This document shows, piece after piece, positions 8,423 to 36,998 of a stretch of DNA of 40,398 bases. Made by a program: the position numbers and the translations under genes. Numbering within the stretch: the stretch's first letter is position 1; every line of letters starts with the position of its first letter. Where the stretch lies: the NCBI GenBank assembly GCA_031253955.1, contig JAIRVJ010000057.1, positions 1 to 40,398 of the forward strand, in the 5' to 3' direction. Below the pieces are notes generated by a model. It was not told where the DNA came from and did not search any database. It was given only the letters and a program-made list of their open reading frames with translations. This DNA is from Burkholderiaceae bacterium (GTDB lineage Bacteria > Pseudomonadota > Gammaproteobacteria > Burkholderiales > Burkholderiaceae_C).

Positions 8423-9874
8423 ATGTGCGGAATCGTCGGCGTCGTCGGCAGCGCCCCTGTCAACCAGCTTCTTTACGACGCGCTGCTGCTGCTCCAGCAC
8501 CGCGGGCAGGACGCGGCGGGCATCGTCACCCAGCAGGAGCGCCGGTTTTACATGCACAAGGAGCAGGGCATGGTGCGCGACGTGTTCCGCACCCGCAACA
8601 TGCGCGCCCTGCCCGGCACGAGCGGCCTGGGCCAGGTGCGCTACCCCACGGCGGGCGATGCCGACAGCCAGGAAGAAGCGCAGCCCTTTTACGTCAACGC
8701 CCCCTTCGGCATCGTGCTGGCGCACAACGGCAACCTGACCAACGCCAGCGCGCTCAAGTCGGAACTGTTTTCCACCGACCACCGCCACACCAACACCGAG
8801 AGCGATTCCGAAGTGCTGCTCAACGTGCTCGCGCACGAGCTGGAACGCGCCTCGCGCGGGCTATCGCTGGCGCCCGCGCAGGTGTTCGCGGCGGTGGAAG
8901 GCGTGCACCGGCGCGTGCGCGGCTCCTACGCGGTGGCCGCGCAAATCGCCGGGCACGGCCTGCTGGCGTTCCGCGATCCCTACGGCATCCGCCCGCTGTG
9001 CTTCGGGCGCGGCGAAGGCGGCGCTTTCATGGCCGCCAGCGAATCGGTCGCGCTCGAAGGCACCGGCCACCAGCTTGAGCGCGACGTGGCCCCCGGCGAG
9101 GCCATCTTCGTCACGCTGGACGGCCAGTTCCACGCCCGCCAGTGCGCGCCCGCCGCCCAGCTTTCGCCCTGCATCTTCGAGTTCGTCTATCTGGCGCGGC
9201 CCGATTCGGCGCTCGACGGCATCTCCGTCTATCAGGCCCGCCTGAACCTGGGCCGGGCGCTGGCCCAGCGCGTCATCTCCACCGTGCCGCCTGATGAGAT
9301 CGACGTGGTCATCCCCATCCCCGAATCCAGCCGCCCCAGCGCCACCGAACTGGCCGCCATCCTCGGCAAGCCCTACCGCGAAGGGTTCGTCAAAAACCGC
9401 TACGTGGGCCGCACCTTCATCATGCCCGGCCAGGCGGTGCGCAAAAAATCAGTGCGGCAAAAACTCAATGCCATCGGCAGCGAATTCGCCGGGCGCAACG
9501 TGCTGCTGGTCGATGACTCCATCGTGCGCGGCACCACCAGCCGCGAGATCGTGCAAATGGCCCGCGAAGCCGGCGCGCGCAAGGTCTACATGGCCAGCGC
9601 CGCCCCGCCCGTGCGCCACCCCAACGTCTATGGCATCGACATGCCCACGCGCGAAGAACTGGTGGCGCATGGCCGCAGCGAAGAACAGGTGCGCCAGCTC
9701 ATCGGCGCCGACGCGCTGATCTACCAGGACGTGGACGCCATGAAGCGCGCCGTCGGCCAGCTCAACCCGGCAGTGCGGCAATTCGACGCTTCGTGCTTCG
9801 ACGGCGTGTACGTTACCGGCGACATCGCCCCCGGAAACGCCGCCTGCATTCCGCGCCAAGGTGACGGAATTTGA
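8423..9874 (+). CDS. purF: Amidophosphoribosyltransferase
   Basis: Catalyses the first committed step of purine synthesis, transferring the glutamine amide to PRPP to give phosphoribosylamine. The 483-residue product begins MCGIVGVVG; Cys2 is the glutaminase nucleophile exposed after removal of Met1. The N-terminal glutaminase domain holds LLLQHRGQDAAGIV and LAHNGNLTN. The C-terminal phosphoribosyltransferase domain carries the PRPP loop NVLLVDDSIVRGTTS at 359-373. The glutaminase domain is complete. In many proteobacteria purF follows cvpA; here the upstream space holds only a repeat element and the DUF192 gene. About 78 bases separate the repeat from the ATG. Confidence 0.97.
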   Translation: MCGIVGVVGSAPVNQLLYDALLLLQHRGQDAAGIVTQQERRFYMHKEQGMVRDVFRTRNMRALPGTSGLGQVRYPTAGDADSQEEAQPFYVNAPFGIVLAHNGNLTNASALKSELFSTDHRHTNTESDSEVLLNVLAHELERASRGLSLAPAQVFAAVEGVHRRVRGSYAVAAQIAGHGLLAFRDPYGIRPLCFGRGEGGAFMAASESVALEGTGHQLERDVAPGEAIFVTLDGQFHARQCAPAAQLSPCIFEFVYLARPDSALDGISVYQARLNLGRALAQRVISTVPPDEIDVVIPIPESSRPSATELAAILGKPYREGFVKNRYVGRTFIMPGQAVRKKSVRQKLNAIGSEFAGRNVLLVDDSIVRGTTSREIVQMAREAGARKVYMASAAPPVRHPNVYGIDMPTREELVAHGRSEEQVRQLIGADALIYQDVDAMKRAVGQLNPAVRQFDASCFDGVYVTGDIAPGNAACIPRQGDGI

Positions 9875-9899
9875 CCCCTCCGCATCGCGCCACTTTTTA

Positions 9900-9928
9900 T
9901 TGACAAAACCGGTTCGGCATGATAAAAA
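9900..9928 (+). promoter_or_regulatory. Putative sigma-70 promoter of the phase-variable surface gene
   Basis: TTGACA (9900-9905, perfect -35) is separated by 17 bases from TAAAAA (9923-9928, four of six matches to TATAAT). The predicted start of transcription would be near 9935, giving a 65-base leader to the ATG at 10000. AAGGA at 9986-9990 is nine bases before that ATG. The promoter lies 25 bases after the purF stop codon. Confidence 0.55.
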
Positions 9929-9999
9929 GCATATTCAGGCACGCATTGCACCATTCATCATGTCGTCTCTAATAGCCATTCCCGAAAGGACGCTAGATC

Positions 10000-12367
10000 A
10001 TGCCTTTCAAAATGTCACAGAAAATATATTTAGTTACGTCTCTCCCCCCCCCCCCCGAATGTAACAATATGTGATTCTTCTGCGTCTCCGAGGTTTGTTT
10101 CCGGGCGGTTTTCTTTTCTTTCTTTTTCCCGGTATTTTGTTTTCGCGCTCTGTCAGGTTTTGCTTGGCGGGGCGTTGTTTTTTGCGCCCGGCGTTTCGCG
10201 GGCGACCAGCGGGGGCAACACCATCGACGTAGGCGACAACGCCACGACCGGTGGCGCGGGTTGGAATTACGACCGGGGCAACAAGGTTTTCACCATTACC
10301 GATAGCGGCGTGAATGTCAAAGGAACGACTTCCAGCAACCGCATCGTGGTGGCCGGCGGCAGCGCCCAGAAAATCATCACGTTCACCGGCAATGTAACCA
10401 TCGACATGAGTAAGGTTGGTGGAGAAAGCTCCTTCGCCTTGAACGGCGCGAACGTGCTGCTGCGGCTGCAAGGAGGAACGAGCAGCACGCTGAAAGGCGG
10501 CGGAAGTGCCCCAGGGCTGCAAGCGCAGGTCGGCTCGACGCTGATCATCGACGCCCTCGGTGCAGGCACTGCCAGCCTTCAAGCTACTGGCGGCCTCTTT
10601 GCCGCTGGTATCGGCGGCGGCTTTTTTCTGGGTCTTTGCTCGCACGGTGAGGACGGCGGCACGATCACGATCAACGGCGGCAACATCACCGTCAACGGTG
10701 GCTTAGGTGCCGCTGGAATCGGCGGCGGCAGCGGCCTCGATAGCGACTTCCTTTGCGGTGGCGGCGGCGGTATCGGCGGCAATATCACGATTGCCGGCAA
10801 CGCCAACGTCACGGCCAACGGTGGCTATGGCGCCGCCGGCATTGGTGGCGGCTATAAGGGAGGCGCCGATCGCAGCCGCATCACGATTGGCGGCAACGCC
10901 AGCGTGACTGCCATCGGCGGCGACGACGATGGTTCACGCAGCGGCGGCGGCGCTGGCATCGGCAGCGGTGTTGGCGGCGTACCGGCTGGCACGATCCGGA
11001 TCGACACCACCGGCGCCGTCATGGCCATCGGCGGGGCCGGCAAGTCAGGTGAGCCGGCGGGCGCGAATATCGGCGAGGGCGCCTATGGCGGTCACGCCGG
11101 CTACGGTCTGCAAAGCGTGACGCCGCCAAGCGGTGCGGCAGCCATGATTGGCGCCATGGCCACGTTTACCGCAGGCAGCGTGAGCACCATAGGATCGCCG
11201 CAGGTGGCCTATCTGTGGGAGTCGAATGTCACGGGAACCTGGAACGTTGTGGGCATGGGCCAATCGGTGACGATCCCGGCGATGTTCTCCGGTATTGCCG
11301 TCCAAAACACGGTGCATGTGTATGGCGGGCCAATGAAAAACGGCTCAGACATTTATTACGTATTTCACCCCAAGCTGACGGTTTATACCGCGACGATTTC
11401 CATCATATCCGAGCCTGTTTCGCAGACGGTGACCGAAGGTGCGATTACAGGTGCGCTATCCGTGGCAGCCACGATCAACCCGAGCGGCACGCTTAAATAT
11501 CAGTGGTATCAATGGGCAAGGCTAACGCCAGCCCAACCAATTCCTAGACAAGAAAATGAAGATGTCCTAATTCTTCTTAATAGCAAGCCGATTGCCGGTG
11601 CAAACAGCGCATCATTCAGGTTTCCGGCGACATTAAAGAAAGAAATGACGTATTATTACCACTGTGTGGTAAGCGAGGCTAATGAAAGAGCAGCGCCAGT
11701 GGTGAGCAAGATAGCTACGGTGTCGGTAAACCCGCCAAAACCGCCGACACCAGCTCCAATATTGACAAACGAGAGTTTGTTGGAAGTAACAACAAACAGT
11801 GTCAGATTCAGTGTGACGAGCAATCAGGATGCGGCGGCGACGTGGGCCATAGTCGGTGCGAACGATACCTGCCCGCCGCTGTCGTCGGTCTCAATTTCCC
11901 CGATGAACTACGGAGATATGAATGCGGCAAAGCCGTTTTCATGGCAGATAATCAATTTGTTGCCGGACACCGATTACAAGCTGTGTTTCTACGCTTACCC
12001 GGCAAACAACCCAACGATTGTCAGCACTTGGGAAAAGACGTTCAGGACGCTTCCTGCGACTTGTGCGCCCAATCTGACGTTGCAGTCGATGAGTTCGACG
12101 AGTACGAGCGTGACGTTTACGGTGAAGAGCGACATCGCCGCAACAGGTTACTGGGCGGTGCAAGAAGCAAACGCGGCCGATCCGAATCCGGACAACATGA
12201 AGAATTCTCCTATCGTCCCTTCGCATCATATGAATGCCAACGAATCTTTTACCAGTACGGTCATGGGCTTGCCGCCAAATACGGATCAAAAACTGTTTTT
12301 CCTCGCAGTCAGTGACACCGGTGGCTGCATGAAGATGCTGACGGTGCCATTCAAGACCCAGCCCTAG
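10000..12367 (+). CDS. Secreted repeat/Ig-like surface protein, frame-interrupted at poly-C
   Basis: Two frames make this gene. The first starts at ATG 10000 (MPFKMSQKIYLVTS), with AAGGA nine bases upstream, but ends at a stop at 10072 because of the 13-C run at 10044-10056. The second is open from 10034 to the stop at 12365-12367 but has no ATG or GTG; its first possible start is a TTG at 10160 in the middle of the signal peptide. With one C fewer the frames join into a 788-residue protein. It would have a long basic n-region, a hydrophobic core around residues 45-63 and cleavage after SRA (about residue 68), matching the paralogue downstream. Next come Gly/Asn-rich beta-solenoid-like repeats with recurring AGIGGG (about 200-330), an Ig-like domain with YQWY and YYYHCVV (about 463-578), and two fibronectin-III-like domains to the end. 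There is no C-terminal sorting motif. A surface or secreted role is likely; the ligand is unknown. Confidence 0.75.
10044..10056 (+). repeat. Homopolymeric C13 tract, candidate phase-variation switch
   Basis: Thirteen consecutive cytosines lie 15 codons into the secreted-protein gene. With 13 Cs translation from 10000 terminates after 24 codons. With 12 or 15 Cs it continues into the 2.3-kb frame. With 14 Cs the frame meets TAA directly after the tract. Such tracts change length by slipped-strand mispairing, the known basis of on/off switching of surface genes in several bacteria. A miscounted homopolymer in the assembly is the alternative. Confidence 0.8.
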
Positions 12368-12543
12368 TGAGATTGCCATAAGCGGCTCCAAGCCAAAAAC
12401 GGAAGCAACTTGCCAATGAAAACGCAAGAATGACAATGTAAAAGGCATAAACGACTAGAGAAAAGTCATGGATGTAATCACAGAAAAGATCACCCAATCC
12501 CCCTGTTCATACCGAATAGGATTCTTGTAAGAAGGAGTAAACG

Positions 12544-13392
12544 ATGTTTGCCACCATTCCCATGTACCACGCGCCGCATTGGAGCAGTCCGTCCGGTTCG
12601 AGGCCATCGCTTTTCAAGCATTTTTATGCTTGGCTCGCCATCATGTCGGCGCTGCTGGGCGCGTTGTTGTTTGCGCCTGGGCTGGCACAGGCGACGTCAT
12701 TGTCTCTGCTGACAATTGACGGCACCCCCACGTCCACCACGGCCGATTTCCGCATCACCCTCCTTGACGCGAATGGAACGGGTTTTTGGTTGGTACAGCC
12801 TGCCGGGGATCCAGCGCCTACGCCAATTACTATCAGCCTGAGCGGCAATTCGGGGCCGATGGTGATGGGCACGCCTTTCACGGGACAATTGACGGGGTTG
12901 ACGCCGGGTACGGACTATATGCTGTACTTCATAGCGTCTGATGGCTCGATAATAAGCAACATTGCGAGCGTGGCGTTCACGACGGGCGTGCCTGTGCTGA
13001 CCGCATTGACAGCAAGCGGAATCACGGCGACGGGGGCCAGTTTCAGTATTACCAGCGATGCCTCTGCCACCGGCTACTGGCTGGTGCGGCTTGCCAGCGA
13101 TCCAGCGCCTACACCAATTGATATTAGCCTCGGCGGCAATTCGGGCCCAATGACGATGGGTACACCTTTTACGAGGTCGGTAGCGGGGCTGACCCCGAGC
13201 ACGAACTATGTGCTGTACTTTATAGCGTCTCAGAGCGGAGCAACGAGCAGCGTGGCGAGCGCACCGTTTACGACACTGGCACTGTCGGCCGGCGCGGCCA
13301 CGGCGGTTCCCACGCTCAACGAATGGGCGCTGGCGCTACTGGCGGCATGGCTGGCCGCCCTGACGTTTTGGCGTAAACGCGGGCAAGCGTAG
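12544..13392 (+). CDS. IPTL-CTERM surface protein with two Fn3-like repeats
   Basis: A 282-residue exported protein. A long n-region (1-26) is followed by a hydrophobic core and cleavage after AQA at residue 50. Two ~95-residue repeats follow (about 52-148 and 149-244). They share SDPAPTPIDIS-like, GNSGPM, LTPGTDYMLYFIAS and AFTT segments and resemble fibronectin-III-like beta sandwiches. The C-terminus (255-282) begins VPTLNEW, then a hydrophobic helix and WRKRG: the IPTL-CTERM signal, thought to be processed by an exosortase-like (archaeosortase/rhombosortase-type) system. AAGGAG six bases before the ATG at 12544 decides the start. Its signal peptide and repeats are similar to those of the gene 176 bases upstream, so the two are tandem paralogues, only this one bearing the sorting tail. 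Confidence 0.85.
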   Translation: MFATIPMYHAPHWSSPSGSRPSLFKHFYAWLAIMSALLGALLFAPGLAQATSLSLLTIDGTPTSTTADFRITLLDANGTGFWLVQPAGDPAPTPITISLSGNSGPMVMGTPFTGQLTGLTPGTDYMLYFIASDGSIISNIASVAFTTGVPVLTALTASGITATGASFSITSDASATGYWLVRLASDPAPTPIDISLGGNSGPMTMGTPFTRSVAGLTPSTNYVLYFIASQSGATSSVASAPFTTLALSAGAATAVPTLNEWALALLAAWLAALTFWRKRGQA

Positions 13393-13762
13393 CGCCAAGA
13401 CGGTTTTCTCCTTCGCTCGTTTGCGGGAGAGGGTTGGAGAGAGGGCCAGCCGAAGGCTGGGGGAGCGCATCCTCAAACTAAAGCGCAAGTCCTTTATAGC
13501 GATTCAGATATATGCGCCTCGTCATTCCCGCGAAGGCGGGAATCCATGAGCGTCACCTTGAAGCCAACGCTGTCTGGATTCCCGCCTTCGCGCATAAACG
13601 CTAACTTGGGGTAAGTGCGCGGTTTTCTCCCTCCCCCGCGTGCGGGGGAAGGGGCAAAACGCCAGCGATTTGTCCTTAAGTTAGCGCCTATGCGTACGGG
13701 CGGAAATAAAAATTTTCTTTCGTAGTCGCAACCCACATTAAACGATGCTTTAATATTGCCCG
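13393..13762. repeat. Non-coding stretch packed with interspersed repeats
   Basis: No gene is seen. A degraded paired-hairpin half lies at 13403-13445. An inverted repeat ATTCCCGCGAAGGCGGGAAT lies at 13524-13543. A second, oppositely oriented GGATTCCCGCCTTCGCG follows at 13576-13592. From 13591 to 13694 there is a short inverted-repeat element: 17-bp ends (CGCATAAACGCTAACTT and its partner at 13678-13694, two mismatches) enclose a single hairpin CCCCCGCGTGCGGGGG. This is an internally shortened relative of the element at 2366-2605. The last 70 bases before the Fic gene hold no recognised signal. Confidence 0.65.
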
Positions 13763-14935
13763 ATGACCCGCAACACCGGTACTTACGCCATCTCCACCAC
13801 GCTGGGCGAGGCGGTATCGGCTTTCGTGCCGCACCCGTTGCCGCCAGCCGGCCCTGCCTTGGCGCTGGCGCCCTTGGCCGATCTCAACCGGCAGGCGGAA
13901 CTGGCGCTGGCGCGGCTGTCGGGGGTATCGAGCCTGGCGCCGTCGGTCGATTGGCTGCTTTACGGTGCCATGCGCAAGGAAGCCCTGCTCACCTCCCAGA
14001 TCGAGGGCACGCAGGCCACGCTCGCCGATCTGTTCAACGAAGAAGCGGGCTTCACGATCAGCAACACCGACGACGTGGCCGAGGTCAGCAACTACCTGCG
14101 GGCGTTTCGCCGGGTACGCGAGCAATTGCACAGCCCCAAGGGCCTGCCCATCAGCGTTCGCCTGTTGCGCGACGCGCACCGGCTGCTGCTTGAGGGCACG
14201 CGGGGCGCGGGCAAGCAACCGGGCCAATTGCGCCGCTCGCAGAACTGGATCGGCGGCACGCGCCCCGGCAACGCGGTGTTCGTGCCGCCCCCGCCGCAGC
14301 AGGTGCCGCAACTGCTGGCGGATCTGGAACGGTTCATCCACGCGGACCTTGGCCGGGCGCCGGGCAATCTGCCGCCCCTGATAAAGATCGCGCTGGTTCA
14401 TGCCCAGTTTGAAACCATTCACCCCTTTCTGGACGGCAACGGGCGCATTGGCCGCCTGCTGATCGCCGTGCTGCTGGAACACTGGAGCCTGCTGACCGAG
14501 CCGCTGATGTACCTCAGCGGCTACCTGAAACAGTATCAAGCCGAGTATTACCGGCGCCTGTCGGCCATCCGCACCGAAGGCGATTGGGAATCCTGGATAG
14601 CGTTTTTTCTGGAAGGCGTGGCCGTTGCGGCGGCGCAAGCGGAGCAAAGCGTCATCGCCATTGCCAGCCTGATCGCCGCCGACCGCAGAAAGCTGTTGCA
14701 ATCACCCAAGGCCAGCCCGGCCAGTTACCGGCTGTTCGAGTTGCTGCCGATGATGCCGCGCTTCACCGTCGATCACGCGCGGCGACAATTGCGCACGAGC
14801 TTCCCGACGGCCAACGCGGCGGTACGGATGTTGCAGCAACTGGGTGTCGTCGCGGAAGTGACAGGCCAGAAAAAAAACCGCAGCTACAGTTACCCGGCCT
14901 ACGTCGCGCTGCTTGCGGGAGAGGGAAAACCATGA
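13763..14935 (+). CDS. Fic family protein (probable AMP-transferase)
   Basis: Fic enzymes usually transfer AMP from ATP to hydroxyl side chains of target proteins. The 390-residue product has the full catalytic motif [12 protein letters not shown] at 220-231, with His220 as the expected base. An N-terminal inhibitory helix TSQIEG at 77-82 fits the (S/T)xxxE(G/N) pattern of self-inhibited, class II Fic proteins, so activity is probably restrained in cis. The C-terminal ~80 residues look like a winged-helix DNA- or protein-binding domain ([24 protein letters not shown]). The stop codon overlaps the prfA start (ATGA), so translation is likely coupled. The target is unknown. Codon use and G+C are like the neighbours. 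Confidence 0.92.
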
Positions 14936-36678: not shown

Positions 36679-36998
36679 ACTGCAAGATTAATAGCTCCAT
36701 ACCCATGATTGGTTTGTATTTTCCAATCAAAATTATTAAAAATGCAATTTATTCACTGGAATCATGCTATAAAAATAGTATTTTCCTTTTCCTTCGTCAT
36801 TCCCGCGCAGCTCCCGCTTTCGCGGGAATGACAGGCAATCCACGTCTTGCTCCTTCTCCCGCGTGCGGGGGAAGGTTGGGATGGGGGTCAGCGGCACCTG
36901 AAAAAATTCAGCGCCTGTTTCCGCGCCGTGCGGCCCCCACCCCAGCCCTCCCCCGCGCGCGGGGGAGGGAGCGGGGGGGCAGCGGAGAAATTTGAGAC
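36679..36998. repeat. Three different repeats between modB and modC
   Basis: No gene is present. At 36686-36780 lies an A+T-rich unit with ATTAATAGC at the left and GCTATAAAAATAG at the right. At 36796-36833 an inverted repeat GTCATTCCCGCG...CGCGGGAATGAC follows. At 36847-36978 there is a paired G+C-rich hairpin unit of the BIME-like type, ending in GGGAGCGGGGGGG 20 bases before the modC ATG. The three families sit side by side inside an operon, so modC translation may depend on read-through of strong hairpins or on its own promoter. Confidence 0.7.

What the first reader, a model, noticed from the sequence alone, without database searches (positions are those of the whole stretch)
9900..12367. 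Candidate phase-variable surface gene switched by a C13 tract
Seen: a good ribosome binding site and ATG at 10000 lead into 15 codons, then 13 Cs, then a stop at 10072. The 2.3-kb frame after the tract is open from 10034, has no ATG or GTG, and its only early start is a TTG in the middle of a signal peptide. Removing one C fuses the two frames into 788 codons, with the upstream half of the signal peptide (PRFVSGRFSFLSFSRYFVF) restored and the cleavage region (APGVSRATS) mirroring the paralogue at 12544 (APGLAQATS). A TTGACA-N17-TAAAAA promoter lies upstream. Inference: slipped-strand mispairing turns the protein ON at 12 or 15 Cs and OFF at 13 or 14.
Basis: partly seen in the sequence, partly recalled or inferred. 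Interest (0 to 1): 0.92.

Follow-up and report, generated by a model that had tools for sequence, protein, structure and literature searches.

The report
Poly-C on/off switch before surface proteins
A run of thirteen Cs just after the start of a secreted-protein gene puts its start out of frame with the rest, and related genes in the same and neighbouring species carry such runs at other lengths, so it is most likely a random on/off switch for surface proteins of the sort known from Neisseria.

Summary
A C13 run (10044-10056) separates a Shine-Dalgarno/ATG leader (10000) from a 777-codon open frame in another register. The frame begins with a signal peptide that has no upstream start of its own. 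The next longest C/G run in the window is 7. The decisive evidence is comparative. In this genome, 4 of the 5 C/G runs of 12 or more lie at this position before signal peptides (C13, C13, C12, C17). The fifth is in the first 36 bases of a contig. The C17 copy is naturally in register and encodes an IPTL-CTERM protein; the other three are out. Another genome of the genus has seven such genes (three C10, two C11, two C13), covering all three registers. Two similar leaders one C apart are one register apart. Chance and fixed frameshifting are therefore unlikely. Slipped-strand translational phase variation of secreted, mostly exosortase-H-type proteins is the best explanation (about 0.85). Switching itself was not seen: no reads or second strain were available. 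The mechanism is classical. What seems new is the lineage, the protein class and the multi-gene set.

The parts
9900..9928 (+). promoter-like TTGACA-N17-TAAAAA, directly after purF
   Evidence: read from sequence; not listed by the consensus scan; weak
9985..9990 (+). Shine-Dalgarno-like AAAGGA
   Evidence: found again by the SD-ATG-C pattern
10000..10043 (+). start codon and short leader (MPFKMSQKIYLVTSL...)
10044..10056 (+). C13 tract, the proposed switch
10072..10074 (+). stop of the leader frame at the assembled tract length
10034..12367 (+). 777-codon open frame of the secreted protein, out of register with the leader
10106..10204 (+). signal peptide in the open frame (RFSFLSFSRYFVFALCQVLLGGALFFAPGVSRA)
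   Evidence: core resembles that of the 12544 gene
10211..11083 (+). glycine-rich repeat region, homologous to the C12 paralogue and to a G001 protein
   Evidence: strand-rich in a low-confidence model
11765..12358 (+). C-terminal strand-rich region shared with the 12544 gene (33% identity)
12544..13392 (+). neighbouring secreted IPTL-CTERM protein without a tract; context, same C-terminal domain type

Best explanation
The locus is a contingency gene. Ribosomes start at ATG 10000, read about 15 codons and then cross the C run. The length of the run, which changes by slipped-strand mispairing during replication, decides which frame they leave in. One of three length classes continues into the signal peptide and the secreted protein (ON). 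The other two end at early stops (OFF). The assembled genome caught an OFF state. The same kind of leader switch sits before three paralogues in this genome and several secreted proteins in related species, so each cell would display a random subset of surface proteins. Shown: tract, frames, stops, paralogues in different registers. Inferred: slippage in vivo, expression, surface location, and benefit (evading phage or grazer, or varying attachment).
For: (1) C13 lies between leader and signal peptide in different frames. (2) Of 16 C/G runs of 9 or more in the genome, 5 are of 12 or more. Four of these 5 lie at this position before signal peptides; the fifth lies in the first 36 bases of contig C146. 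(3) C159 (C17) is naturally in register and full length, with an IPTL-CTERM. (4) SD-ATG-C8 patterns in the 29 genomes of the genus, own included: 38 distinct places, against 1 and 2 hits for the reversed patterns. Of 13 places with C10 or more, 12 run into a signal-peptide-like hydrophobic segment (no control frames scored). Two of the 13 are in register, against 18 of 25 places with C8-9 (Fisher p 0.0016; registers assigned mechanically, and the 25 include doubtful frames). (5) The seven such genes of G027 cover all three registers. C130 and C163, with leader 93% and flank 85% identical, are one C and one register apart; C14 and C163 are three Cs apart and share a register. (6) In all 6 out-of-register G027 copies no in-frame start lies early enough to make the whole signal peptide. 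(7) The peptide between tract and signal peptide resembles that of the G001 protein in the open frame (PPxVTxC). (8) Two remote homologues in other phyla have a G run at the same place: L140 (G10, out of register) and L192 (G9, in register), each with SD, ATG and signal-peptide-like segment.
Against: No reads and no second strain: length change within a population is unseen. The finding's own leader is not clearly homologous to the others (56-73% over 26-32 columns, near the crude random baseline of 67%). The G001 homologue is out of register with only C7, too short for fast slippage, so it may be dead or differently regulated; its contig shares no purF neighbourhood with the window. The C12 paralogue has an in-frame ATG before its signal-peptide core. 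Registers are uneven: 3 in, 9 one way, 3 the other, of 15 loci with C runs. The promoter call is weak. In the wider family the SD-ATG-C10 pattern occurs in 14 of 399 genomes, own included, and is not above its reversed control (20 rows against 68, 64 of them in one genome). Most IPTL-CTERM genes of this genome have no such run.
Confidence: 0.85

Rival explanations
1. Assembly miscount: the true tract is in register and the gene is simply on.
For: Homopolymers are error-prone, and the genome is a 167-contig draft.
Against: It cannot explain why long runs sit at this same position in several paralogues and species and cover all registers. Even if this one count is wrong, a C run of about 13 remains slippage-prone.
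Confidence: 0.07
2. Programmed ribosomal frameshifting or transcriptional slippage on the C run gives a constant low level of full protein from one fixed sequence.
For: 9 of 15 loci share the same register offset. Long C runs can slip in RNA synthesis and decoding (general knowledge).
Against: All three offsets occur within G027, with lengths 10, 11 and 13, and one locus there and one in G000 need no shift. A fixed recoding site would keep one offset and one length.
Confidence: 0.05
3. The gene is a decayed pseudogene, or starts internally at TTG 10160/10175, so the tract is only 5' untranslated sequence.
For: TTG codons lie in frame at 10160 and 10175. The C115 copy is truncated near a contig end, and the G027:C163 frame ends 50 codons after its tract.
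Against: Both TTGs lie inside the hydrophobic core and would remove the n-region. The rest of the 2.3-kb frame is open. The peptide upstream of the TTG resembles that of the G001 protein. Out-of-register copies in G027 have no internal start ahead of the core.
Confidence: 0.03

Closest known systems
Neisseria pilC translational phase variation
   Same: Homopolymer in the 5' part of the coding region; length change frame-shifts and switches a surface protein on and off (PMC5320596, passages seen).
   Different: Poly-G in Neisseria against poly-C here; unrelated protein; no experimental switching here.
Neisseria opa (CTTCT repeats)
   Same: Copy-number changes of a repeat switch a surface-protein gene (PMC5320596 passages; several loci per genome and placement in the leader are recalled).
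   Different: Pentanucleotide repeat; different protein family.
Bordetella pertussis frameshift phase variation
   Same: A frameshift controls phase in another member of the Burkholderiales (timeline row and reference title in PMC11868660, passages seen; the order, and that it is a C tract in bvgS, are recalled).
   Different: There the switch lies in a regulator; here in each secreted protein's own leader.
IPTL-CTERM / exosortase H (XrtH) surface proteins
   Same: The in-register paralogue C159, the G001 homologue and neighbour 12544 carry IPTL-CTERM; XrtH is found in 25 of 29 genomes of the genus, G000 included. One IPTL-CTERM protein is reported as an S-layer protein in Methylomirabilis (PMC8671808, one passage).
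   Different: The finding's protein has no IPTL-CTERM; searches listed no paper on phase variation of this class.

Membership tests
SSR-mediated translational phase-variable gene | Long simple-sequence repeat in the 5' part of the coding sequence | tested here: met
   C13 at 10044-10056 after about 15 codons
SSR-mediated translational phase-variable gene | Off registers end at early stops, one register gives a full protein | tested here: met
   stops 10062, 10072 and open frame to 12367; natural in-register paralogue C159
SSR-mediated translational phase-variable gene | Repeat length differs between homologous loci and the register follows it | tested here: met
   tracts of C10 to C17 among paralogues; C130, C163 and C14 of G027
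SSR-mediated translational phase-variable gene | Repeat length differs between cells or strains of one species | not testable with these tools
   one assembly per species, no reads
SSR-mediated translational phase-variable gene | Reversible high-frequency switching of the product | not testable with these tools
   needs cells
IPTL-CTERM (PF18203 / TIGR04174) exosortase-H substrate | C-terminal IPTL motif, transmembrane segment and basic end | tested here: not met
   no match for the 10034-12364 protein. C159 passes TIGR04174 (21.9 against 20.5) and just misses PF18203 on its own (19.1 against 20.8; 23.0); G001 and 12544 pass; the two G027 copies scanned fall under TIGR04174 (19.5 and 17.1)
IPTL-CTERM (PF18203 / TIGR04174) exosortase-H substrate | XrtH encoded in the same genome | tested here: met
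   G000:C104:42363-42830, 191 bits, cut-off 86
Signal-peptide secreted protein | n-region, hydrophobic core, AxA-like cleavage site | tested here: met
   FVFALCQVLLGG core, Kyte-Doolittle 2.12, 3 K/R between tract and core; SRA cleavage-like site read; no trained predictor was available

The most novel reading that the evidence does not exclude
Leader, homopolymer run and signal peptide act as a conserved switch module in front of fast-diverging surface proteins. It has arisen with unrelated leaders in at least two species of the genus, and with G runs in homologues from other phyla, so that cells shuffle a combinatorial, largely exosortase-sorted surface repertoire. Leaders and post-tract DNA are 79-95% identical in the closest pairs, while the mature proteins are 34-44% identical where they match at all.
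Probability: 0.3. Interest if true: 0.7.

Novelty: new member of a known kind. Interest (0 to 1): 0.55.

Why it matters
Homopolymer phase variation is best documented in pathogens and host-adapted commensals. Here it appears as a multi-gene set before mostly exosortase-type surface proteins, in a genus for which my searches found no report of it. It suggests that part of a class of sorted surface proteins is expressed stochastically, and gives defined loci where this can be tested from existing reads.

Tried and rejected
Chance run: rejected (and the paralogues). Fixed recoding: rejected because registers vary. Wider family survey with the SD-ATG-C10 pattern: 14 of 399 genomes, own included, mostly generic by the matched letters; not above the reversed control (68 hits, 64 in G198); loci not examined further. 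Five of the 79 hold a C/G run of 8 or more. Three have an SD-ATG leader running into it: L200 (C11), L140 (G10) and L192 (G9); L170 has G12 after a signal-peptide-like segment, with the frame changing there. I had at first passed over L140 and L192 and found them on re-checking. Synteny: the G001 contig shares only this gene and one unrelated family with the window. Solved structures: 0 matches with A1. Structure model: mean pLDDT 50.2, pTM 0.42 from two sequences, not enough for a fold claim. Rfam: 0 matches in 9700-14000. Tandem repeats: only weak arrays in 9000-14000, best score 65. Codon-position test: substitutions lean only slightly to third positions (27/22/33 in G000, 199/207/298 in G027), weak support for coding constraint. 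DNA identity of mature parts sat at a crude random baseline; the protein comparison shows they are partly homologous, so I lowered the novel case from 0.35 to 0.3.

Literature, listings and abstract starts only unless said: IPTL-CTERM with exosortase 0 papers; Ottowia with phase variation 0, a genus guess of mine that no call supports; poly-C tract, signal peptide, homopolymeric and phase variation 1, on Neisseria; exosortase with phase variation 3, none about this; phase variation with Comamonadaceae or simple sequence repeats 161, 15 seen; IPTL-CTERM/XrtH terms 7, one relevant; phase variation, gut symbiont, Burkholderiales, homopolymer 18, 15 seen. Passages read: PMC5320596, PMC11868660, PMC8671808.

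Limits: one search used a pattern that misses runs of exactly 11 followed by G. Thirty-one regions around its tracts were fetched; most at contig ends were left out. The printout was cut; one search showed L114-L121, but the rows of L122 were not seen.

Full report
What is there. The window (contig C8 of a 2.6-Mb, 167-contig draft genome) has purF at 8423-9874, then AAAGGA-N9-ATG at 10000, a leader of about 15 codons, 13 Cs at 10044-10056, and a stop of the leader frame at 10072. A second frame is open 10034-12367 (777 aa). Its closest upstream stop is 10031. Between there and the signal-peptide core it has no ATG, GTG or TTG; TTGs occur at 10160 and 10175, inside the core, then GTG at 10310 and ATG at 10406. 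C or G runs of 13 or more are expected about 0.0024 times in this window, and the next longest is 7.

The protein. From the open frame alone: a signal peptide, a glycine-rich repeat region, and C-terminal domains 33% identical over 204 columns to the neighbour at 12544. The neighbour is a secreted IPTL-CTERM protein. The finding's protein matches no Pfam or NCBIfam family at 0.001. At 0.1 only a weak Pfam beta-helix repeat appears (0.025) and nothing in NCBIfam. The AlphaFold model has mean pLDDT 50.2 and pTM 0.42 and is used only for strand content.

Paralogues in the same genome. A scan for nine or more Cs found 16 runs. Five are of 12 or more. One lies in the first 36 bases of contig C146 in a low-complexity stretch. 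The other four all lie between an SD-ATG leader and a signal peptide: C8 (C13, this finding), C12 (C13), C115 (C12) and C159 (C17). C159 is in register from its ATG to the end of a 475-residue protein whose C terminus passes TIGR04174. C8, C12 and C115 are out of register. The C115 frame ends at 135 codons near a contig end. Leaders of C12, C115 and C159 are 80-93% identical and their post-tract 90 bases 88-91%. Their mature parts have diverged: C115 and C159 match over 52 residues at 37%, C12 and C8 over 103 at 35%, and C12 with C159 not at all at 0.001 with low-complexity filtering; an unfiltered search aligned C12 to C159 at 35%. The finding's own leader is more distant. Of ten IPTL-CTERM matches in the genome, nine gene starts were looked at. 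Only C159 has a C/G run of 7 or more in the bases examined; two others have a T7 or A7 about 250 bases upstream. Two of the nine frames run off a contig end, and for one (L086) the frame start read seems to lie inside a larger gene. The tenth, at 12544, has no C/G run of 8 or more near it.

Relatives. In the 29 genomes of the genus, own included, two patterns (AGGA or GGAG, spacer, ATG, short gap, C8 or more) gave 24 and 22 places, 38 distinct. The reversed patterns gave 1 and 2. In one search each place was assigned mechanically, by the longest frame after the tract. Of 13 places with C10 or more, 12 lead into a signal-peptide-like segment; the exception is G000:C75 near a contig end. Two of 13 are in register. 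Of 25 places with C8-9, 18 are in register; these are a mixture of evident genes, three or four with signal-peptide-like starts, and doubtful frames (Fisher p 0.0016). G027 holds seven switch-like leaders: C14 C13, C89 C13, C122 C10, C130 C11, C143 C10, C163 C10 and C76 C11. One is in register, three are in one off register and three in the other. C130 and C163 (leader 93%, flank 85% identical) differ by one C and by one register; C14 and C163 differ by three Cs and share a register. None of the six out-of-register copies has an in-frame start early enough to make the whole signal peptide; one has a GTG inside the core. G027:C89 encodes an ankyrin-repeat protein; the mature parts of four others (C14, C76, C130, C143) match each other at 34-44% where aligned, while C122 matched none of the set and C163 was left out. 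G026:C2 (C9) is in register before a signal peptide. G012:C144 (C10) is out of register and ends at a contig end. The G001 homologue has only C7 and is out of register. A named MAG contig (L150, Burkholderiaceae bacterium Pmx449_bin7) has the same length and shares the stretch tested with that G001 contig. L200 (Proteobacteria bacterium Cu122P3bin14) has C11 after an SD-ATG leader, out of register, before 1,848 codons. Over these 15 loci: 3 in register, 9 in one off register, 3 in the other; the excess of one is suggestive at best.

Other phyla. Among 79 remote homologues, L140 (a Bacillota MAG) has SD, ATG, leader, G10 and then a signal-peptide-like segment out of register, and L192 (a Coriobacteriaceae MAG) has G9 in register in the same place; L170 (a Coriobacteriales MAG) has G12 just after a signal-peptide-like segment with the open frame changing there. 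So the arrangement is not peculiar to this genus.

Mechanism. The best reading is slipped-strand translational phase variation. The presence of all three registers in one genome speaks against fixed recoding. The recurrence of the tract at the same place speaks against assembly error as the whole story. Not shown: length change in a population, expression, surface location, advantage. Outside the genus the exact SD-ATG-C10 pattern was not above its reversed control in 399 genomes of the family.

Known context. The arrangement works like Neisseria pilC, where a homopolymer in the 5' coding region sets the frame (PMC5320596, passages). The protein class is that of exosortase-H/IPTL-CTERM substrates for several of the family members. 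XrtH is found in 25 of 29 genomes of the genus, G000 included. Membership fails for the finding's own C terminus. Searches listed no paper joining IPTL-CTERM/exosortase with phase variation of this kind; that covers only the open-licence library searched.

Verdict. It is a new member of a known kind, in a lineage and protein class where my searches found no report.

Noticed in passing
window 36793-36842: A roughly 50-bp intergenic inverted-repeat element (CGTCATTCCCGCG...CGCGGGAATGAC). A query holding a copy gave 49 matches across the genome, most of them to this element, including one upstream of the C159 switch gene.
   Followed up: no
window 13763-14935: Fic/DOC-family protein with Fic_N downstream of the two surface-protein genes.
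   Followed up: no
L043 68-472 (G000:C115): A fourth paralogue with C12 whose frame ends at 135 codons, close to the contig start; the end looks like a junction with foreign sequence.
   Followed up: partly
G000:C112:344-590: Fragments similar to the C159 protein, perhaps a remnant paralogue.
   Followed up: no
L104 (G027:C89): The in-register C13 gene of G027 encodes a secreted ankyrin-repeat protein, a different passenger class from the IPTL-type proteins.
   Followed up: partly
L102, L282 (G027): G027 has XrtH but no PF18203 match. Tract proteins end in a variant motif (SPTLGELGLLLSG...RRR) under the TIGR04174 cut-off.
   Followed up: partly
L140, L170, L192: G runs of 10, 12 and 9 before or just after signal-peptide-like segments of large repeat proteins in Bacillota, Coriobacteriales and Coriobacteriaceae MAGs; possible phase-variable surface genes.
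   Followed up: partly
L123, L125 (G007): Long mixed C and G runs in contigs of G007 look like assembly artefacts.
   Followed up: no
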